40,514 nucleotides of DNA from an uncultured Coriobacteriaceae bacterium (GTDB lineage Bacteria; Actinomycetota; Coriobacteriia; Coriobacteriales; Coriobacteriaceae): contig CASFXG010000011.1 of NCBI GenBank assembly GCA_949298635.1, forward strand, positions 1 through 40,514. Direction: 5' to 3'. Position 1 is the stretch's first letter. The number at the start of each line of letters is the position of its first letter. This document shows, piece by piece, positions 8,984-17,394 of this stretch. The position numbers were made by a program, and so were the translations under genes. The notes below the pieces were generated by a model. That model ran no database searches, was not told the DNA's origin, and saw nothing but the letters and a program-made list of their open reading frames with translations.

Positions 8984-9997
8984 CTAGTCGGTTGCTTCGA
9001 ATGCAGCGGGAGCCGTATCTCCAGGGCCGCCCGCCCCGAGCGGGCAGCCGCCTTCCTCCCGCACGATATACACCGGACGGCGCTTCGTCTCGAGATACGT
9101 CTTTGCCAGATACTGCCCGATGACTCCCAGGCACAGCAGCTGAAGCCCGCCGATGAACGTGATAATGCACGCGAGCGACGGCCAGCCGGCAACCGGGTCG
9201 CCGAAGAGCGCCGCGCGCACGACGATCACCGCGACCGCCATGAACGCCACCGCGCAGAGCGCGATGCCCGCATACGAAGCGATCGCGAGAGGCACCGTCG
9301 ACACAGCGATAATGCCCTCGAACGCATAGCGCGCGAGCCCCCAGAAGCTCCAGCTCGTCGTCCCGGCGGCGCGCTCGGTGTTCTCATAGTCGATCCAACG
9401 CGTGTTGAAGCCGACCCATCCGAAGATACCCTTCGAAAACCGGCAGGTCTCACCCAGCGAGAGCACCGAGTCAACCACTGGCCGGCGCATCATGCGGAAA
9501 TCGCGCGCGCCGTCGGGTACGGGCGTGGGCGAGATGGCGTTCACCAGGCGGTAGAATATCCGGGCGCCGAGCGACCGCAGCCACGGCTCGCCCGTGCGCG
9601 TGATGCGCCGTGTGGCCACGCAGTCGATATCGGGGTCGTCGTGCAGGATGCGAAGCATCTCCGTGAGCAGCGCCGGCGGGTCTTGCAGGTCGCAGTCCAT
9701 CACGGCGACGAGCTCTCCTTCTGCAGCGCGAAGCCCGGCAAGGAGCCCCGCCTCTTTGCCGAAGTTCCGCGAGAACGAGAGGTACCGGATGCAGAACGGC
9801 CGCCGACGCCGATCGCGCGTCACGGAGCGCATGATGCCGAGTGTCCCGTCGCTCGACCCGTCATCCACCAAGATGACCTCCACCTCGCGGCACAGGTGCT
9901 GGAACTCCTCACCGGCAACGACGTCCTCGAGCGCCTCCAGCGCAAGTGGCAGGCACGCCTCCTCGTTATGGCAGGGTATGACGATGGAAAGCCTCAT
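8984..9997 (-). CDS. GT2 polyprenyl-phosphate glycosyltransferase (GtrB/DPM1-like)
   Basis: The 337-residue protein begins MRLSIVIPCHNEE, followed by DDGSSDGT and the metal-binding DCDLQDPP, all typical of GT2 enzymes that load a sugar onto polyprenyl phosphate at the cytoplasmic face. Two strongly hydrophobic segments near residues 235-260 and 270-295 match the GtrB/ArnC/dolichyl-phosphate-mannose synthase layout. The start is the ATG at 9997, which overlaps the stop of the upstream membrane glycosyltransferase (ATGA). A GTG at 10045 would add an arginine-rich tail and is less likely. The pair suggests a lipid-linked sugar donor made by this enzyme and used by its neighbour. The sugar is unknown. 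Confidence 0.9.
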   Translation of the reverse strand: MRLSIVIPCHNEEACLPLALEALEDVVAGEEFQHLCREVEVILVDDGSSDGTLGIMRSVTRDRRRRPFCIRYLSFSRNFGKEAGLLAGLRAAEGELVAVMDCDLQDPPALLTEMLRILHDDPDIDCVATRRITRTGEPWLRSLGARIFYRLVNAISPTPVPDGARDFRMMRRPVVDSVLSLGETCRFSKGIFGWVGFNTRWIDYENTERAAGTTSWSFWGLARYAFEGIIAVSTVPLAIASYAGIALCAVAFMAVAVIVVRAALFGDPVAGWPSLACIITFIGGLQLLCLGVIGQYLAKTYLETKRRPVYIVREEGGCPLGAGGPGDTAPAAFEATD

Positions 9998-11664
9998 AGA
10001 TCTTCTCCTGCAGAGTCTGCGCCGCCTTCGTCGTGGTATTCGCACACCATGATCGCCCAGTCGACGCGGTCATACGCACGTGAAACGGTTTCTTCAGACG
10101 CCACCTCGAGCCCCGCGGCAGCAAGCTCGGCGCGATCGCGCGCGAGGAGCTCCTCGGTGGGATTCTCGCGGACGAACACCACGGTATCTCCCGCCTCCAC
10201 GCCATCGAGCGCCTCTTCCCACGAGTCTGTGGGGTCTATGCCCGTGCCGTACGCACGCCACACGTTTTCCGTCCACCATGAATCCCGGAGGAAGTCGAGG
10301 TACACGAACGTCTCTTCCGGATACTGCCCGCAGAGGACACTCTCCACGCGGGGACTCGGCGAGACCACGACGCCCTGCAAGCCCGACGCCTCCGCCTGTG
10401 CCACCGGCTCCATGACTGCATCGACACTCTGCGTGTTCGTGGCATCGTAGAGCCTGAGCATCACGCCCGCCCAAAGCCCGGCAAACAGCACAGCGACAAG
10501 CGCGATGCCGACCGTGAGCGCGCGTATTCCACGGACGGAGCGAGCGCGGTGAAGGCGCTCCCATGCCCGCGCGAGCGCGATCGCCATCGCAAGCGCCACA
10601 GGTCCAAGCACCACGACGAGGTATCGGTAGAAGAGGATCATCCTGCCCATGCCGAGCGAGGCGAGCACCATGATGATGACGAGCCCCGCATAGACCGCAC
10701 CCGCGAAGCAGAGAGCGCGCCACTCGGCAGGCGCAAACCAGGAAGGCGCATCTCCTTGGTCCGCGCGACGCGCGTCGGCGTCATCCGAGGCACCCTGCGC
10801 CGCCACACGCCGGCGGTAGCGCAGCACGCCCAGCAGGGCTCCGAGGCATACGAGCACGAGCGCCGCCGACTGGACGGTAAGGTCGCAACTTAGCATGTCT
10901 GTGGTGAACGGGAACATGAGCACCGAAACGATCGTGTACGGAAACTCGAACGTAATCCAAAACGAGCTCGCGACCTCGCCCATCTGAGCCGTGAGCATGC
11001 GCACCCACGGGAGGTAGAGCACGAGCTGCGCCACGGCGAGTACCGCCCACGCGCGAAGCTTGCGCCGGTCGCACCGCCAGAAGCAGAGCATGAGCCCCGC
11101 GTTGATGAGAAACGCCGCAACCGCAGCGTAGTAGTGCAGATACGCCGAGGCGATGCCCGAGGCCCCCAGCGCCGCCCACGCGATAAACGGCGCGCGCTCG
11201 TTTGCATGCGCAGCGGACATCAGGCGCAGCGCAGCGAGAAAGCACACCGAGACCGTGAACATCGACCAGGAGTACATGCGAATCTGCCAAACCATATGCT
11301 GGGAAAATGGCAGAAAGAGCACGAGCGCGGAAAACGCGAGCCCCGCGCGCTCCCCGAACATGCGGCGCACCACGACAGGCCCCAAAAGCGCCGTCGCCAC
11401 CATGCCCGCAACGGAAAGCAGCCGGTACGCAAGGATGCTCTCGCCCGCCGCCAGATATACCGCGTGCGCCATCCAATAATAGAGCGGCGGATGCACGTCG
11501 ATAGCGGTAAGCTGCCAGATCTGGGCGAAATCCTGGCGCACGAGTGCGACAGAATAGCCCTCGTCGTACCAGATGTTGCCGTTGAGCGCGCCGGCGATGA
11601 GCATGCCGAGCCCCAGGAGAAACACCCCTGCCCACGCCCAGTGCATGCGTTTACTACTTGCCAT
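9994..11664 (-). CDS. Multi-pass membrane glycosyltransferase (GT39/ArnT-like, GT-C fold)
   Basis: The protein has 556 residues and many membrane segments. The first extracytoplasmic loop carries NIWYDEGYS and, about 20 residues on, DVHPPLYY. These acidic and HPPLYY signatures are hallmarks of the mannosyltransferase/ArnT-like GT-C superfamily, which moves a sugar from a polyprenyl-phosphate donor to a glycan, lipid or protein outside the membrane. A soluble tail of about 130 residues follows the last segment. Of two nearby ATGs (11673 and 11664), the second is spaced 9 nt from AAGGA and is preferred. The gene overlaps the GT2 donor synthase by 4 nt. The acceptor is unknown; a surface glycan is likely. 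Confidence 0.85.
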   Translation of the reverse strand: MASSKRMHWAWAGVFLLGLGMLIAGALNGNIWYDEGYSVALVRQDFAQIWQLTAIDVHPPLYYWMAHAVYLAAGESILAYRLLSVAGMVATALLGPVVVRRMFGERAGLAFSALVLFLPFSQHMVWQIRMYSWSMFTVSVCFLAALRLMSAAHANERAPFIAWAALGASGIASAYLHYYAAVAAFLINAGLMLCFWRCDRRKLRAWAVLAVAQLVLYLPWVRMLTAQMGEVASSFWITFEFPYTIVSVLMFPFTTDMLSCDLTVQSAALVLVCLGALLGVLRYRRRVAAQGASDDADARRADQGDAPSWFAPAEWRALCFAGAVYAGLVIIMVLASLGMGRMILFYRYLVVVLGPVALAMAIALARAWERLHRARSVRGIRALTVGIALVAVLFAGLWAGVMLRLYDATNTQSVDAVMEPVAQAEASGLQGVVVSPSPRVESVLCGQYPEETFVYLDFLRDSWWTENVWRAYGTGIDPTDSWEEALDGVEAGDTVVFVRENPTEELLARDRAELAAAGLEVASEETVSRAYDRVDWAIMVCEYHDEGGADSAGEDL

Positions 11665-11730
11665 GAGCTGCATTCCTTACGTTTCGCGCATCGCGCGCCC
11701 GCATCCCGTGCGACTGCAATTGCTCGCAGC

Positions 11731-11736
11731 ATTGTA
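11731..11736 (-). promoter_or_regulatory. Possible -10 box of the glycosyltransferase-mfd operon
   Basis: On the minus strand the sequence reads TACAAT, 67 bp before the ATG at 11664. No convincing -35 is visible. It would be the promoter for both glycosyltransferase genes and possibly mfd. Confidence 0.35.
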
Positions 11737-11766
11737 CCGCGAGCCGCCACACGCTCATGAAAACCT

Positions 11767-11842
11767 GACGTGCGGACAATAATCCCGCACGAACCTCCTC
11801 AACTCAAACTTCATCGCGCGCTGCAAAAGTTGTCCGCACGTC
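11767..11842. promoter_or_regulatory. Long-spaced 13-bp dyad in a divergent promoter region
   Basis: GACGTGCGGACAA at 11767-11779 recurs as its exact complement at 11830-11842. The copies are 63 bp centre to centre, close to six helical turns. The right copy ends 4 bp before a TATACT box of the plus-strand gene; the left copy lies upstream of the minus-strand TACAAT box. A third CCGCACG is at 11785-11791. Paired operators for a regulator shared by the two divergent genes is one reading; a palindromic repeat is another. Confidence 0.45.
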
Positions 11843-11846
11843 GTTC

Positions 11847-11852
11847 TATACT
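11847..11852 (+). promoter_or_regulatory. Possible -10 box of the 560-residue gene
   Basis: TATACT lies 73 bp before the ATG at 11925. The leader between them contains a GGATCA/TGATCC stem (11871-11876 with 11895-11900). No clear -35 is visible, since the dyad occupies that place. Confidence 0.35.
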
Positions 11853-11924
11853 TCAAACGTAACGAGATGTGGATCAAAGCCGCCAAGAGAGGCCTGATCC
11901 CAGCGCATTTGATAAGGAGCGTGT

Positions 11925-13607
11925 ATGAGTACCGAACCGAACACCACCGGCCGCCTTTCATTCCCCGAGTACGACGAAGAGGGTCTGTATCCTAGCCAGC
12001 AAGTCAACCGCCTGCGCAAAGAGGGCAAACTTGATCTGGCTTATCGCTACGCCCAGCAAGAGCTCGACGACAACCCCGAAGACAAGTACCTCGCAAGCGC
12101 CCTTGGGTGGGTGTATTACAACTACCTCAAGCAGCAACACGACAAGATCAACGCCGACCACGGTGTCGAGCGCTATGTCCACGTCCTCGAAACGATTGAC
12201 CAGTTTGAAACAACGTACTCCATTCCCTTAGATGACCTGCTGGCAGACTCAGTCTGTAAGAATTTCACCTCCTCGGCATGGGAGCTCCAGAAGGCTGGAA
12301 ATCTCGACGGTTTGCGTGCGCTTATCGACGCGCCGCGCCCGTTCTACTACGAAGCATCAGAACTCGCGCGCCCATTCCTCATCGCATTCAAGGATTCCCC
12401 TGAAGACCTTGTTCATGTTGTCGACAGCATGCCCCTTTGGTCGCTCCTCGAAGGTCGAGGCTTTGCCAAAAAGAGCTATGAGGGCAAGCAGATAAAGGGC
12501 GATGGCGAGCGCCTTGCCGACGATTACCTCAAGGCGCTTCTGGAGCTAAGCGAGACGCGCTCCCTCACGCCGCTTCCCGAAAAAACCGAGCGCACCATCA
12601 ACAGCATCGCATCGACGCTCAAAGGCGCGCATGAAAAGCCCGCATTAGAAAGTTCCAAGCATATTGCCCAATGGGAATGGACGCCTTACTACCTTGGCCG
12701 CGTGTTGACCAAAGCGGGGCGCTATGAGGAAGCGCGCGAATTCCTCGCCCCCATCGCGGTGGCAAAGCCAAAGGAAGAGTACCTGCAGAATGCATTCAAG
12801 CGCGCCTGTGCCGACAACCCCGCACTTGGCGAGGCTGGACCGAGCGCCTACCTTGTTTCGAAGACTCCCGTCACACCGATTTACGTCGAATGGATCAATC
12901 GAGAAAAGGGGCTCATCGGCATCGCGGTTCGCCGCATCGAGACAAAACAATCCTATGTGTACGGTGAAAAGCCCTCCACCAGCACCTACATCGATCGGTT
13001 CAAGATCAAGGATCGCCAGCGCGCCCAGACGCTCATGGAGGGCTATACGTACGACGCACAGCTCCTTCCCGAGCATGCCGGTTTTGCCGCAGACCCCGTT
13101 CCCTGCACGGACAGCGAGTTCGAGAAGGTGTTCGTGAAGCAGTTCTCCGGGCGCTTTGAACAGGTTAAGGCGTTCGGCTTTGTACACCCGTCCCACATTT
13201 TCACCTCAGGATACTATGTCTCGCCGAAGCTCCTCGAGCAGCACCCCATTGAGAACCTCTCCATGGTAACGGGGCGCGCCGTAGCCGTATTTAAGCGTAA
13301 GAGCAAAGACACAGACGCAGGAACCTGGCGCTTTGAAGTGCAATCTTTCGACACCATCGAAGCGCCCGATCCCGCCGATATCGAGCGTACGTTCAAAGGC
13401 GAGTACCGCGCCATGAGGCGAGGGGACGGGGGATTTGTTGAAGACTGCTTCATCCCCGCAAAGATTTGTCAGGACAACAATGCGAGTGCCGCGCTCCGCG
13501 ACGGCCTCATGGTAGAGGTGCGCGCACGTCTCAGCTGGAACAAGAAGCATGTGAGCTGGGGCTGGACGGCTGTCGACGTACGTCCTGTCGAAGACCCCGA
13601 AGCATAG
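11925..13607 (+). CDS. Uncharacterised protein with TPR-like helices and possible OB-fold C-terminus
   Basis: I do not recognise this 560-residue protein. The start has a strong AAGGAG site 6 bp upstream. The N-terminus has TPR-like helices (LDLAYRYAQQELDDNPEDK, about 35-53), and a second such stretch is near 245-295 (LTKAGRYEEAREFLAPI). Residues about 315-390 and 425-560 are rich in beta strands, with EWINREKGLIGIAVRRI and WNKKHVSWGWTAVDV; these could be OB- or cold-shock-like nucleic-acid-binding folds. There is no signal peptide or membrane segment, so it is probably cytoplasmic. It stands alone on the plus strand between two minus-strand operons, and by eye its GC content is lower than its neighbours', which would suit acquired DNA. 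A stress or nucleic-acid-related role is only a guess. Confidence 0.75.
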   Translation: MSTEPNTTGRLSFPEYDEEGLYPSQQVNRLRKEGKLDLAYRYAQQELDDNPEDKYLASALGWVYYNYLKQQHDKINADHGVERYVHVLETIDQFETTYSIPLDDLLADSVCKNFTSSAWELQKAGNLDGLRALIDAPRPFYYEASELARPFLIAFKDSPEDLVHVVDSMPLWSLLEGRGFAKKSYEGKQIKGDGERLADDYLKALLELSETRSLTPLPEKTERTINSIASTLKGAHEKPALESSKHIAQWEWTPYYLGRVLTKAGRYEEAREFLAPIAVAKPKEEYLQNAFKRACADNPALGEAGPSAYLVSKTPVTPIYVEWINREKGLIGIAVRRIETKQSYVYGEKPSTSTYIDRFKIKDRQRAQTLMEGYTYDAQLLPEHAGFAADPVPCTDSEFEKVFVKQFSGRFEQVKAFGFVHPSHIFTSGYYVSPKLLEQHPIENLSMVTGRAVAVFKRKSKDTDAGTWRFEVQSFDTIEAPDPADIERTFKGEYRAMRRGDGGFVEDCFIPAKICQDNNASAALRDGLMVEVRARLSWNKKHVSWGWTAVDVRPVEDPEA

Positions 13608-13683
13608 CTGCCAACCTTGGGCATGGCCTTTCGCAGGGCAATGACGACCCGCGACGACGCTTACGTCCAGAGGGGCGTGCACC

Positions 13684-13773
13684 ATGCAACGCGAGTCCGA
13701 CGACGTCAAGCATGAACGCGCCATGGGGTCGCGCCGTCCGCCTGTCTGCCTCTGGGCAATGTTCAACCTATAG
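13684..13773 (+). CDS. Possible 29-residue small protein
   Basis: An ATG at 13684 follows AGAGGGG at a workable distance and opens 29 codons, beginning MQRESDDVKHERAMG and ending WAMFNL, with its stop next to the terminator hairpin. It lies 76 bp after the 560-residue gene in the same direction. It has no recognisable domain and could be chance. The rest of the 13608-13774 gap shows nothing further. Confidence 0.2.
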   Translation: MQRESDDVKHERAMGSRRPPVCLWAMFNL

Positions 13774-13808
13774 TAAAAGCCGGCGACACCCACACGGGTA
13801 TCGCCGGC
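13771..13808 (-). terminator. Intrinsic terminator of the alpha-glucoside operon
   Basis: Stem 13779-13791 pairs with 13796-13808 (12 of 13 pairs, core GCCGGCGA) around the loop ACAC. Read on the minus strand it is followed by TTTTAC. It lies 62 bp past the stop of the transport ATPase gene, the last gene of the operon. Confidence 0.75.
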
Positions 13809-13869
13809 ATGCTCTACACGTCATTCAGACTGCCCGTACGGCGCGCCACCGCACGGTGCGCACTCGCAG

Positions 13870-14979
13870 CTACTTGGCCGCACCGTGGCAGATGGCCTTC
13901 TCGGTCTCCTTATCGAAGACGTGCACATGGTCGAGCTCGGGCGCGATGCGCACCGTGTCGCCCGCATGGATATCAAGGCGCGAGGAGATGCGCGCGATGT
14001 GCCGGCGCTCGCCCACGGTGAAGTACACGTACACCTCGCTGCCCATAAGTTCGGAGAGATCGACTCGTGCCTCGATGACGGCGCTCGGGGCGGCGTCGAG
14101 GTACTCCTGCTCCTCGTGGAAGTCCTCCGGGCGGATACCCACGACGACATCCTTGCCCACGTAGTCCGCGAGCTCGGGGTTCGGCAGGGGGATCCTGCCC
14201 ATCGCGCCCACGACCTCGAAGCCGTCGCCCGCGCGTTCCACCACGGCATCCATGAAGTTCATCTGCGGCGAGCCGATGAACCCGGCGACGAAGATGTTGT
14301 CCGGACGGTCGAAGAGGTTCTGCGGCGTGTCGACCTGGAAGATCTCGCCGTCGCGCATGACGACGATGCGGTCGCCCATGGTCATGGCCTCGGTCTGGTC
14401 GTGCGTCACGTAGACGAACGTGGTCTCGAGGCGGCGGTGCAGGGCAGAGATCTGGGCACGCATCTCCGTGCGCAGCTTCGCGTCGAGGTTCGAGAGCGGC
14501 TCGTCGAGCAAGAACACCGCTGGGTCGCGTACCATGGCGCGGCCGAGCGCCACACGCTGGCGCTGGCCGCCGGAAAGCTCCTTGGGCTTGCGGTCGAGGA
14601 ACTTCGTGAGCTCCAGGATCTTCGCCGCCTCCTCAACCTTGCGCCGGATCTCGTCCTTGGGGGTGCGACGCAGCTCGAGCGCGTAGGCCATGTTGCGATA
14701 CACCGTCATGTGCGGATACAGCGCGTAGTTCTGGAACACCATGGCGATGTCGCGATCCTTGGGCTGCACGTCGTTCACGCGCTTGTCGCCAATGTACAGG
14801 TCACCCGACGAGATGTCCTCCAAGCCGGCGATCATGCGCAGCGTCGTGGATTTACCGCAGCCCGAAGGCCCCACGAGCACGATGAATTCCTTGTCCTTAA
14901 TCTCGAGGTTCAGATCCGGTACGACCGTGACCTTGTTGTCGTAGGTTTTCGTGACGTGCTTGAATGTGATGCCTGCCAT
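13870..14979 (-). CDS. Sugar ABC transporter ATP-binding protein (MsmK/UgpC/MalK type)
   Basis: The 369-residue protein is the nucleotide-binding subunit that powers carbohydrate import. It shows Walker [10 protein letters not shown] (37-45), Q-loop [13 protein letters not shown], signature [14 protein letters not shown], Walker [17 protein letters not shown] and the H-loop [13 protein letters not shown]. About 130 further residues form the C-terminal MalK/TOBE regulatory domain, with VVGIRPEDF. It is the last gene of the locus, 3 nt after the mutase-GH13 fusion. A transport ATPase inside the operon fits a dedicated importer, but MsmK-type ATPases often serve several importers, so it may be shared. 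Confidence 0.92.
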
Positions 14980-14982
14980 CTT

Positions 14983-17394
14983 CTATTCCTTCCTCTCGTC
15001 TTCGCAGATGAGCACGAACGCCTCGAAGGGGCGCAGCTCGCCATCTCCGCGGTTGCCATAGTTCGCAAGGACCGTGCGCGCGCCCGTCCAATCCTCGGGC
15101 AGATCGAACGCCACGGCCTCGCCGCCGAAGTTGCACGCGATGAGCGCGCGCGTGCCGCCGAGCAACCGCTCGTAGGCGTACACATGCTCATCCGTCGCCG
15201 CGAGCAGGCGGTAGCGGCCGTACACGAGTACCTCATGCGCGCGGCGTACCGCAATGAGCCGACGGTAGTAGTGGAAGACCGAGTCCGCGTCGGCCAGCGC
15301 CTCCTCGACGTTGATCTTGTCGTAGTTGGGGTTGAGCGCGTGCCAGGGCGTACCCTCGGTGAAGCCGCCGTTCGCCTCCGCGCTCCACGGCATGGGCGTG
15401 CGCGCGTGCTCGCGGCTGCGGTAATTGATGATCTCCATCATCTCGTCCGGCTCCACGAGCCCGGCTTCCGTGAGCTCTGCGAAGGCGTTCCGCGTATGGA
15501 CGTCGTCGATCTCGTCGATGCTCGTAAACACGCAGTTCGTCATCGCGATCTCGTCGCCCTGGAAGATATAGGGCGTGCCCTGCATGAGATACAGACAGGT
15601 CGCGAGCATCTTGGCCGAAAGCTTGCGCCGCGCATCCGTCGAGGTGTCGCCGAAGCGCGAAACTACGCGCGGCTGGTCGTGGTTGCCCCAGAAGAGCGCA
15701 TTCCATGCGCGTCCCTCGAGCGTCTCCTGCCAGCGGGTCATGACGCGCTTGATATCCGCCACCGACCAATCCCAATCGCGCGTCCACTTGCGCGACTCGC
15801 CGCCATCCACATCCATGAGCTCGAACTGGAACGCCATGTCGAGCTCCTCGCGGTCGAACCCGGCATACAGGCACGCGAGCTCGGGCGTCACCGCCGCGTT
15901 CTCGCCCACCGTCATGTCGTCATAGTGCGCAAGCACCCGTTCGTGCATCTCGTGCAGGTACTCATGGACGCGCGGGCCGTTCGCGCACTGCGGCTCGTAA
16001 TCGCCCCACAGGCCGTCCGCACGCACAGGGCCGTCTTCGAAGCCCGCCTTGGAAATGAGGCTGATGACGTCCATACGGAACCCGTCGATGCCCTTCTTGA
16101 ACCAGAAGTCCATCATGTCAAAGACCTCGTCGCGCACGCGCGGGTTCTCCCAGTTGAGGTCCGGCTGCTCGGGCGTGAAGAGATGCAGGTAGTACTGGCC
16201 GCTTGCCTCGTCGAACGTCCAGGCGGAACCACCGAAGCAGCTGCCCCAGTTGTTGGGTGCGCCGCCGTCCGGCGCCGGATCACGCCAAATGTAAAAGTCG
16301 CGGAACTCGCCGGCGGGGTTCTGTTTGCCCGCGATGAACCAGGGATGCTGGTCGGAGGTGTGGTTCACCACGAGGTCCATGACAAGGCGCATCCCGCGCG
16401 CATGGAGCGCGGCGAGCAGCTCGTCGAAATCGTCCATCGTGCCGAAGGTATCGAGAATGGAGCGGTAATCGGAGATGTCGTAGCCGTTGTCCACGCCCGG
16501 GGAGCGGTAGATGGGGTTGAGCCATACCACATCGACGCCGAGCGCGGAAAGGTAATCGAGTTTGGCGATGATGCCGCGCAGGTCACCGATGCCGTCCCCG
16601 TTCGCGTCGTAGAAGCTCCGGGGATAGATCTGGTAGACGACCGCTTCCTTCCACCACGTGCGCCCGCCGGGTATCTCCGCTTCCGGGGCCGCCGGGCTGC
16701 CCGGCCGCTCCAGAAGCGACGCCAGCTCGGAGACGTCCTCCACGCGCGCATCTGGCGCGCAGTGAAGCGGCCAGGCACCGCGCCCCACGCCCACGCAGGC
16801 CATGCCGCCCGCGCGCGCCGCTTCGAGACCGGCCACAGCATCCTCGACCACCAGGCACTCCCCCGGCTCGAGCCCGAGCGCGTCAGCTGCTCGCAGGAAC
16901 ACCTCGGGGTCGGGCTTGGAGCGCTCAATCTGGGAGCCGTCGATCACAGAGTCGAAGAGGTCGGTCGCCTGCAGCCGCTCCAGGATATAGGGCGCGTTCT
17001 TGCTCGACGAGCCCACGGCGAGCTTGAAGCCCGCCTCCCGCAGGCCGCGAAGCATCGCGCGGGCCGCCGGATCCATGTCCTCGGGCGTCATCTGCGCCAA
17101 GAGCGCACGATAGCGCTCGTTCTTCTCGGTCGCGAGGCGCTCCTTCTCGGCATCGCTGTAGCTATGCGGGCTGCCCTCGAGGATGATTTCCAGGCTCTCC
17201 ATGCGGCTCACGCCGCGCAGACGGTCGTTGATTGTCCAGTCGAAGGGTGCCTCCACCTCGCGGGCGCAGTCGAGCCACGCCTCGTAGTGGAAGCGATCCG
17301 TGAAGCAGAGCACGCCATCGAGGTCGAAGATGATACCCCGAGGCGCGAGTCGGCGGGCGAGCCGCTGGGACAGCCCGGATGCCACGCTCGTCAT
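14983..17394 (-). CDS. Fused beta-phosphoglucomutase and GH13 alpha-glucosidase
   Basis: An 803-residue fusion. Residues 1 to about 225 are a HAD-family beta-phosphoglucomutase: Asp24 and Asp26 in IIFDLDGVL, LRGVSRMESLEIIL, GSSSKNAPYI and VVEDAVAGLEAARAGG. After a short linker, about 245-803 form a GH13 enzyme beginning WWKEAVVYQIYPRSFYD. Its triad is Asp442 (DGFRMDVISL), Glu498 (TVGENAAVT) and Asp573 (FWGNHDQPR). Val after the nucleophile Asp points to alpha-1,6 (isomaltase-type) rather than maltase specificity. The mutase half converts beta-glucose 1-phosphate, the product of inverting GH65 phosphorylases, to glucose 6-phosphate. The start overlaps the GH65 stop by 4 nt. These enzymes are usually separate proteins, and I see no stop or frameshift between the halves. 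Confidence 0.93.
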   Translation of the reverse strand: MTSVASGLSQRLARRLAPRGIIFDLDGVLCFTDRFHYEAWLDCAREVEAPFDWTINDRLRGVSRMESLEIILEGSPHSYSDAEKERLATEKNERYRALLAQMTPEDMDPAARAMLRGLREAGFKLAVGSSSKNAPYILERLQATDLFDSVIDGSQIERSKPDPEVFLRAADALGLEPGECLVVEDAVAGLEAARAGGMACVGVGRGAWPLHCAPDARVEDVSELASLLERPGSPAAPEAEIPGGRTWWKEAVVYQIYPRSFYDANGDGIGDLRGIIAKLDYLSALGVDVVWLNPIYRSPGVDNGYDISDYRSILDTFGTMDDFDELLAALHARGMRLVMDLVVNHTSDQHPWFIAGKQNPAGEFRDFYIWRDPAPDGGAPNNWGSCFGGSAWTFDEASGQYYLHLFTPEQPDLNWENPRVRDEVFDMMDFWFKKGIDGFRMDVISLISKAGFEDGPVRADGLWGDYEPQCANGPRVHEYLHEMHERVLAHYDDMTVGENAAVTPELACLYAGFDREELDMAFQFELMDVDGGESRKWTRDWDWSVADIKRVMTRWQETLEGRAWNALFWGNHDQPRVVSRFGDTSTDARRKLSAKMLATCLYLMQGTPYIFQGDEIAMTNCVFTSIDEIDDVHTRNAFAELTEAGLVEPDEMMEIINYRSREHARTPMPWSAEANGGFTEGTPWHALNPNYDKINVEEALADADSVFHYYRRLIAVRRAHEVLVYGRYRLLAATDEHVYAYERLLGGTRALIACNFGGEAVAFDLPEDWTGARTVLANYGNRGDGELRPFEAFVLICEDERKE

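What the first reader, a model, noticed from the sequence alone, without database searches (positions are those of the whole stretch)
11925..13607. Unrecognised 560-residue gene between operons
TPR-like helices at the N-terminus and beta-rich, possibly OB-like regions at the C-terminus, a strong ribosome site, lower GC by eye, and a lone plus-strand position. It could be an acquired stress or defence gene whose partners lie elsewhere. Among single genes here it is the best candidate for new biology.
Basis: inference. Interest (0 to 1): 0.55.

Follow-up and report, generated by a model that had tools for sequence, protein, structure and literature searches.

The report
Orphan TOTE-type TPR–OB gene
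A lone, probably acquired bacterial gene turns out to encode the nucleic-acid-binding half of a predicted anti-phage defence pair, found without its helicase partner and placed behind what looks like a DNA-damage-inducible promoter.

Summary
The ORF is real (11925-13607, +, 560 aa, good ribosome site; GC 56.9%, lowest of 26 window genes measured). It is not a housekeeping gene. It is a divergent TPR–S1/CSD protein of the TOTE conflict systems (Pfam PF22707, 4e-20, two copies; PADLOC PDC-M16B, 1e-32). Its model shows TPR-like helices and three OB folds. In 5 other genomes of its order, relatives sit directly behind a NERD-helicase (PDC-M16A type). The window gene has no such partner beside it, nor in its 86%-complete assembly. 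It keeps only 38 of 141 positions of DUF7017, which 6 of 6 helicase-paired relatives have and 0 of 5 short relatives show.

New here: 72 nt before the ATG lies TTGTCCGCA-N8-TATACT, the layout of the mycobacterial RecA-independent (PafBC) DNA-damage promoter, tTGTCRgtg-N8-TannnT. In 20 genomes of the order the motif gives 18 hits against 1 reversed control. Genes behind it include class II ribonucleotide reductase, exonuclease VII, a HIRAN protein and a JetD-like protein. All 7 genomes checked hold exactly two WYL-domain genes, in tandem, PafBC-style.

Best reading: an orphaned TOTE-type nucleic-acid-binding protein kept as a stand-alone, DNA-damage-induced factor. Family solid; regulation good but computational; action inferred.

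The parts
11925..13607 (+). gene for a 560-aa TPR + triple-OB protein of the TOTE / PDC-M16B kind
11830..11852 (+). TTGTCCGCACGTCGTTCTATACT, RecA-NDp (PafBC)-like promoter motif, 72 nt before the ATG
   Evidence: consensus passage in PMC5656591
11767..11779 (+). upstream arm of a perfect 13-bp inverted repeat (other arm 11830-11842): a minus-strand TTGTCCGCAC facing the neighbouring gene, without a good -10
11914..11919 (+). ribosome-binding site AAGGAG, 5-nt spacer
11991..12863 (+). TPR-like helical hairpins, residues 23-313
   Evidence: model; fold matches; Pfam TPR hits below cut-off
12675..12788 (+). remnant of DUF7017 (profile positions 1-38 of 141), residues 251-288
   Evidence: 23.6 bits, cut-off 27.5; gap in alignment A2
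12870..13112 (+). OB fold 1, residues 316-396; no Pfam match in this protein, but the aligned segment of four relatives matches DUF7016
13134..13361 (+). OB fold 2 (S1/CSD-like, KAFGFV RNP1-like motif), residues 404-479
   Evidence: superposes on the Rho RNA-binding domain, Z 7.8-8.4
13386..13586 (+). OB fold 3 (S1CSD-TOTE-2), residues 488-554

Best explanation
The gene encodes an orphan TOTE-type accessory protein: a TPR scaffold carrying three OB folds that should bind single-stranded nucleic acid. In paired systems this protein is encoded directly behind a nuclease-helicase effector. Here the effector and most of DUF7017, probably the helicase-docking part, are missing. The gene is expressed from a PafBC-type promoter, so the likely order of events is: DNA damage or phage-made breaks, activation of the PafBC-like WYL pair, synthesis of the protein, OB folds coating exposed ssDNA or RNA, TPR surface recruiting a host repair or degradation enzyme. 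Shown by computation: domains, family, orphan state in the assembly, promoter motif, tandem WYL regulator genes. Inferred: nucleic-acid binding, damage induction, the role of DUF7017, and the recruited partner.
For: Family: PF22707, 4e-20, two stretches; PDC-M16B, 1e-32; PF22707 in 12 of 12 members of alignment A2. Fold: mean pLDDT 80.6, helices then three beta barrels; OB2 on the Rho RNA-binding domain, Z 7.8-8.4, rmsd 2.3-2.7 over 66-69 residues; OB1 folded alone, pLDDT 89.1, among PriB, S17, telomere-end-binding, SSB and RPA OB folds, Z 6.2-7.4, tied. Pairing in kin: 5 of 5 long relatives of the order directly follow a NERD-helicase. Orphan state: no helicase match in G000, none of 9 partner queries matches the window. 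DUF7017: 6 of 6 helicase-paired, 0 of 5 short relatives, remnant here. Promoter: layout TTGTC....-N8-TAnnnT; 18 hits against 1 reversed control in 20 genomes; free positions conserved outside the own genome (C10 in 13 of 14, G11 in 11 of 14, T18 in 8 of 14). Genes behind it: nrdJ, xseA, HIRAN, JetD-like, DUF2130. Regulator: exactly two WYL genes, in tandem, in 7 of 7 genomes; in G000 the second has WYL, WCX and HTH_PafC matches.
Against: The motif differs from the mycobacterial consensus after TTGTC (CGCA, not RGTG). Near relatives in other genera the motif matrix, trained on the window's own family, found nothing above 13.6 against 30.1 for the window site (10 loci), and a looser pattern found nothing in 18 upstream stretches. 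The single-arm chance test in the window is not impressive by itself: 2 matches (both exact) against 1.6 expected at up to 2 mismatches. No close orthologue exists for testing selection or promoter conservation, and the window protein sits on a long branch (1.27), which also fits decay. HTH_PafC (18.4 bits, cut-off 32) and WCX (23.1, cut-off 23.9) are below Pfam cut-offs; the first WYL protein shows only WYL. TBP-TOTE by itself was not sought in G000. The third OB fold has DGGFV where relatives have GFGF-like letters. The terms nrd, xse and HIRAN do not occur in the main texts of two PafBC papers.
Confidence: 0.5

Rival explanations
1. A decaying leftover of an acquired PDC-M16/TOTE defence pair: the helicase was lost and the remaining protein no longer does anything.
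For: Orphan state, most of DUF7017 missing, long branch, absent from the other 4 genomes of the genus.
Against: 560 codons open with a good ribosome site and a damage-type promoter motif. In Olsenella-type genomes two orphan copies (G101, G117) persist intact, NG86 dN/dS 0.42 between them and 0.30-0.54 over the 10 pairs of the short group.
Confidence: 0.2
2. A working anti-phage gene that acts with a helicase-nuclease encoded in trans, in the unassembled part of the genome, or with a non-homologous host helicase.
For: Assembly only 86.3% complete. The family is listed as candidate defence (PDC-M16), and plasmid-borne pairs exist in E. coli and Sulfurospirillum. One relative neighbours a different SF1 helicase (L034).
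Against: No NERD-helicase in the assembly. In 6 of 6 helicase-paired relatives the helicase is the directly preceding gene, not in trans. The presumed docking region is missing.
Confidence: 0.2
3. An ordinary RNA-binding stress protein (cold-shock or Rho-like) that resembles this family only by sharing OB folds; the TOTE label is incidental.
For: OB2 resembles the Rho RNA-binding domain, and Rho_RNA_bind is matched by 5 of 12 members of A2.
Against: The similarity includes the TPR part (PDC-M16B best stretch, residues 23-284; alignments). The gene is rare and patchy, unlike a housekeeping gene.
Confidence: 0.07

Closest known systems
TOTE conflict systems (TPR, OB, TBP, Effector; Aravind, Iyer et al. 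2022 as cited in PMC12458937, passages seen)
   Same: TPR part plus S1/CSD OB domains; Pfam S1CSD-TOTE-2 twice
   Different: no effector or TBP gene beside it, no NERD-helicase in the assembly, own promoter
PDC-M16 (PADLOC candidate defence pair, PDC-M16A helicase + PDC-M16B)
   Same: PDC-M16B match, 1e-32, best stretch residues 23-284
   Different: PDC-M16A not found; DUF7017 cut to 38 of 141 positions
TALON (YprA-type system with NERD nuclease, TPR-CSD and TBP; PMC12458937, passages seen)
   Same: also uses a TPR-cold-shock fusion
   Different: no such genes were seen around this one; YprA was not searched for
PafBC / RecA-NDp DNA-damage regulon of mycobacteria (PMC5656591, PMC6789036, passages seen)
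   Same: TTGTC core, 8-nt gap, TAnnnT -10, tandem WYL regulators, DNA-repair genes among the targets
   Different: CGCA in place of RGTG after TTGTC; found here in Coriobacteriales-type genomes; not tested by experiment

Membership tests
TOTE TPR-OB component | S1CSD-TOTE OB domain above Pfam cut-off | tested here: met
   PF22707, 72 bits against 27, two stretches; both copies over the cut-off
TOTE TPR-OB component | TPR-like N-terminal region | tested here: met
   Pfam TPR hits, below cut-off; consensus TPR superhelices rank first by Foldseek, 2.2e-4; helical hairpins in the model
TOTE system | effector (helicase/nuclease) in the same operon | tested here: not met
   neighbours on the opposite strand and unrelated; tblastn of NERD-helicase, PDC-M16A and SF1-helicase queries finds nothing in the window
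TOTE system | TBP-TOTE domain encoded | not tested
   seen in the helicases of relatives: L011 twice, L038 and L039 over the cut-off, L036 and L037 under it; not sought alone in the own genome
PDC-M16 pair | PDC-M16B protein | tested here: met
   1e-32
PDC-M16 pair | PDC-M16A helicase present | tested here: not met
   NERD-helicase form absent from the 86%-complete assembly and from the window; the other PDC-M16A form (L011) was sought only in the window and held stretches
PDC-M16 / TOTE | anti-phage activity | not testable with these tools
   -
PafBC (RecA-NDp) promoter | tTGTCRgtg-N8-TannnT | tested here: inconclusive
   TTGTC, 8-nt gap and TATACT met; RGTG not met (CGCA), in a variant shared by related genomes
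PafBC (RecA-NDp) promoter | PafB-PafC tandem WYL regulators in the genome | tested here: met
   two tandem WYL genes in G000 and in 7 of 7 genomes; HTH_PafC and WCX below cut-off, so PafBC identity is likely, not proven
PafBC (RecA-NDp) promoter | RecA-independent induction by DNA damage | not testable with these tools
   -

The most novel reading that the evidence does not exclude
The TPR–triple-OB component of TOTE/PDC-M16 defence pairs has repeatedly been freed from its helicase and kept as a stand-alone protein. In this lineage it was captured by a PafBC-type DNA-damage regulon, making a damage-induced, RPA-like ssDNA/RNA-binding scaffold and linking a phage-conflict module to the non-SOS damage response.
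Probability: 0.4. Interest if true: 0.65.

Novelty: new variant of a known kind. Interest (0 to 1): 0.5.

Why it matters
I found no described activity for the TPR–OB half of TOTE-like systems in the papers searched. An orphan copy with its own damage-type promoter separates it from the helicase, so its binding and its effect on phage or DNA damage can be tested alone. The promoter also points to a PafBC-type, LexA-independent damage regulon in Coriobacteriia, on which the library gave no paper holding both terms, and gives a motif for finding further damage or defence genes in these genomes.

Tried and rejected
NCBIfam gave no family. PHROGs gave one weak hit, 0.0043, to a family of unknown function. 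Plasmids and phages gave no match to the window protein; IMG/VR scans with A1 and A2 gave none; a first scan of genome contigs gave none, the second, with an alignment, 4 loci. phmmer against PDB sequences found nothing at E <= 1, and the profile search of A2 gave 8 rows, repeat proteins for the most part, best 6.2e-6 to a designed PPR protein. A profile comparison of A2 with L011 is not independent because L011 is in A2; with A1 it supports only the last OB fold. Foldseek's whole-model matches are mostly generic TPR repeats, and Z values near 8 or lower can mean only a common arrangement (notes); the top row for OB1 is a DUF2500 protein, Z 7.4. A sigma-70-type scan found no promoter in 11500-14000, which fits an activator-dependent promoter but proves nothing. 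The synteny test was uninformative: the nearest ABC-ATPase loci in related genomes lie in other contexts. The idea that the inverted repeat is a transposon end was dropped, since single copies of one arm stand in front of other genes. The motif matrix was trained on sites chosen by the pattern, so its scores are not independent evidence. The pattern was partly derived from the window's own site; the independent part is the 14 hits outside G000, and the inverted-repeat arm itself, at one mismatch, gave 11 hits in G000 against 4 for its reversed control. NG86 dN/dS is crude at this GC and YN00 failed; notebook entry 6 gives the range too narrowly, the table says 0.30-0.54. The window gene itself could not be put in a dN/dS test. 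My gene caller is crude and misread strands in several GC-rich stretches, so gene tables from it were used only where a family search, tblastn or backs them, or marked 'by eye'.

Full report
WHAT IS THERE. The ORF 11925-13607 (+) is intact, 560 aa, with AAGGAG 5 nt before the ATG. Its GC (56.9%) is the lowest of the 26 window genes measured, and its GC3 (0.69) is low: 22 of the 26 have 0.78-0.93. It stands between two minus-strand genes, with 278 bp free in front (11647-11924) and 262 bp behind (13608-13869), in a contig that is exactly the window (G000:C11; assembly 1.93 Mb, 83 contigs, 86.3% complete).

FAMILY. Pfam gives S1CSD-TOTE-2 (PF22707, 4e-20, two stretches) and, below its cut-off, the first 38 of 141 positions of DUF7017. 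The two OB copies lie at about 405-462 and 488-551 and both exceed the cut-off in the genome search, which found no other copy in G000. PADLOC gives PDC-M16B (1e-32). NCBIfam has nothing. TOTE stands for TPR, OB, TBP, Effector; I read this in passages of PMC12458937, which cites Aravind, Iyer et al. 2022; I have not seen the cited paper. No paper in the library holds 'TOTE conflict system' or 'PDC-M16'.

STRUCTURE. The model (12 sequences, mean pLDDT 80.6, pTM 0.64) shows TPR-like helices 23-313 and three beta barrels, 316-396, 404-479 and 488-554. Barrel 2 superposes on the RNA-binding domain of Rho (Z 7.8-8.4, rmsd 2.3-2.7 over 66-69 residues) and carries KAFGFV, close to the cold-shock RNP1 motif KGFGFI (motif recalled). 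Barrel 1, folded alone (pLDDT 89.1), is OB-like: the 50 rows, Z 6.2-7.4 and tied, include PriB, ribosomal S17, telomere-end-binding, SSB and RPA domains, with a DUF2500 protein on top. In four relatives the aligned segment matches DUF7016. A shared fold shows no function.

RELATIVES. By sequence 3 of 118 relatives and 3 of 396 phylum genomes match, own genome included; by profile 11 of 396 class genomes, own included. None of the other 4 genomes of the genus has it. The ten others fall into two kinds. Five long ones (L035-L039, called at 610-760 aa; the start in L038 is uncertain) each directly follow a 959-972-aa protein with a NERD domain above cut-off in 5 of 5; UvrD_C_2 is matched in 4 of 5 (above cut-off in 2); TBP-TOTE is above cut-off in L038 and L039, below it in L036 and L037, and not listed for L035. 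The L035 protein is PDC-M16A. That helicase is found in 5 of 5 of these genomes and in 0 of 6 of G000, G101, G117, G608, G695 and G735. A sixth paired case, outside the class, is L011: a helicase with two TBP-TOTE domains followed by a TPR–DUF7017–S1CSD protein. Among plasmids, tblastn with the L035 protein finds 66 records, 22-24% identical in the 10 rows shown; the two I opened, from E. coli and Sulfurospirillum, have the same order, 'AAA family ATPase' then the matching gene ('tetratricopeptide repeat protein' and 'hypothetical protein'), overlapping by 4 nt.

ORPHANS. In the short group the gene lies near one and the same HAD hydrolase gene in 5 of 5 held loci (the other four 86-94% identical to G101's), but its company differs: 256-aa gene, ClpP, TraD-like ATPase and SF1 helicase in G735; a 293-aa-type gene, ClpP and TraD-like ATPase in G608; the 293-aa gene only in G695; none of these in the 19-kb stretches of G101 and G117 (tblastn, E <= 1e-3). 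NG86 dN/dS is below 1 in 10 of 10 pairs (0.30-0.54; 0.42 for the two orphans). So neighbours come and go while the TPR–OB gene stays intact. The tree puts the window protein beside this group (88/91, not starred) on a long branch, with the helicase-paired G719 next. DUF7017 is matched in 6 of 6 helicase-paired relatives, over at least 138 of its 141 positions, in 0 of 5 short ones, and in the window protein over 38 positions. I infer that DUF7017 docks the helicase.

PROMOTER. The upstream gap holds a perfect 13-bp inverted repeat (11767-11779, 11830-11842). Its downstream arm begins TTGTCCGCA-N8-TATACT, which ends 72 nt before the ATG. The mycobacterial LexA/RecA-independent damage promoter is tTGTCRgtg-8 nt-TannnT (passage of PMC5656591); PMC6789036 names the PafBC motif RecA-NDp (passages). 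The pattern TTGTCCGCA-N9-A-N2-CT gives 4 hits in G000 (0 control) and 18 hits in 10 of 20 genomes against 1 for the reversed pattern; base composition predicts about 3.6. Outside G000 the positions that the pattern left free are conserved: C10 in 13 of 14, G11 in 11 of 14, T18 in 8 of 14. Of those 14 hits, 9 lie 27-56 nt before an ORF of at least 60 aa with a purine-rich site; for the other five (L080, L083, L085, L087, L088) the listing shows no such ORF within 100 nt (which lists the three longest ORFs per hit). The 9 are nrdJ (L081, L086), xseA (L082, L089), HIRAN (L092), JetD-like (L090), DUF2130 (L091) and two small proteins (L084, L093) without a family. In G000 the motif stands before nrdJ (L074), a HIRAN gene (L072) and the window gene; the fourth hit (L075) lacks C10 and looks like chance. 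All 7 genomes tested hold exactly two WYL genes, about 1 kb apart; in G000 the second has WYL, a WCX match just under its cut-off and a weak HTH_PafC match. No paper in the library holds both PafBC and Coriobacteri*. The motif was not found near relatives in other genera, whose consensus may differ.

HOW IT PROBABLY WORKS. Damage (or phage-made breaks) activates the WYL pair, the gene is transcribed, and the protein binds exposed single-stranded nucleic acid through its OB folds and offers its TPR surface to a host enzyme. The domains, orphan state in the assembly and promoter motif are computed; binding, induction and partner are inference.

VERDICT. Not housekeeping and not wholly unknown: an orphan variant of the TOTE/PDC-M16B protein with a damage-type promoter.

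Noticed in passing
L034:6675-13333 (G735); L033:6549-10749 (G608): Olsenella-type gene cluster: 256/293-aa unknown protein, ClpP-like protease, TraD/VirD4-like ATPase, TPR–OB protein and (G735 only) an 862-aa SF1 helicase resembling MkoA/MkoC; possibly an undescribed TOTE-like defence system.
   Followed up: partly
L074, L081, L086 (nrdJ); L082, L089 (xseA); L072, L092 (HIRAN); L090 (JetD-like); L091 (DUF2130): A RecA-NDp/PafBC-like motif TTGTCCGCACG-N7-TAnnCT in front of DNA-repair-type genes in genomes of the window's family: a possible LexA-independent damage regulon.
   Followed up: partly
L009:10506-11708; L032:17188-18387; L090:1555-2775: JetD-like genes; the one in G016 (L090) has the damage-type motif 31 nt before its start. 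Whether JetABC genes accompany them was not searched.
   Followed up: no
window 8984-11646: A GT2 glycosyltransferase and a PMT-like protein (weak Pfam hit) next to the finding; the PMT-like protein matches 6 of 25 genomes, own included, but 0 of the other 4 of the genus, so 8984-13607 may be a variable stretch between mfd and the ABC-ATPase gene.
   Followed up: partly
window 14983-17394 (-): 803-aa ORF fusing a HAD-type hydrolase (residues 19-203) to a GH13 alpha-amylase-type domain (255-726).
   Followed up: partly
L039:8790-18467 (G651): The helicase + TPR–OB pair sits beside genes that look like phage tail genes by eye, so it may be prophage-borne there.
   Followed up: no
L010, 300 nt upstream of 9998 (-); L032 upstream of 8499: Short repeated elements (GCCGCCCTTGTCC, TTCTAGGAA-like) in the spacer in front of short-form genes, seen by eye.
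   Followed up: no
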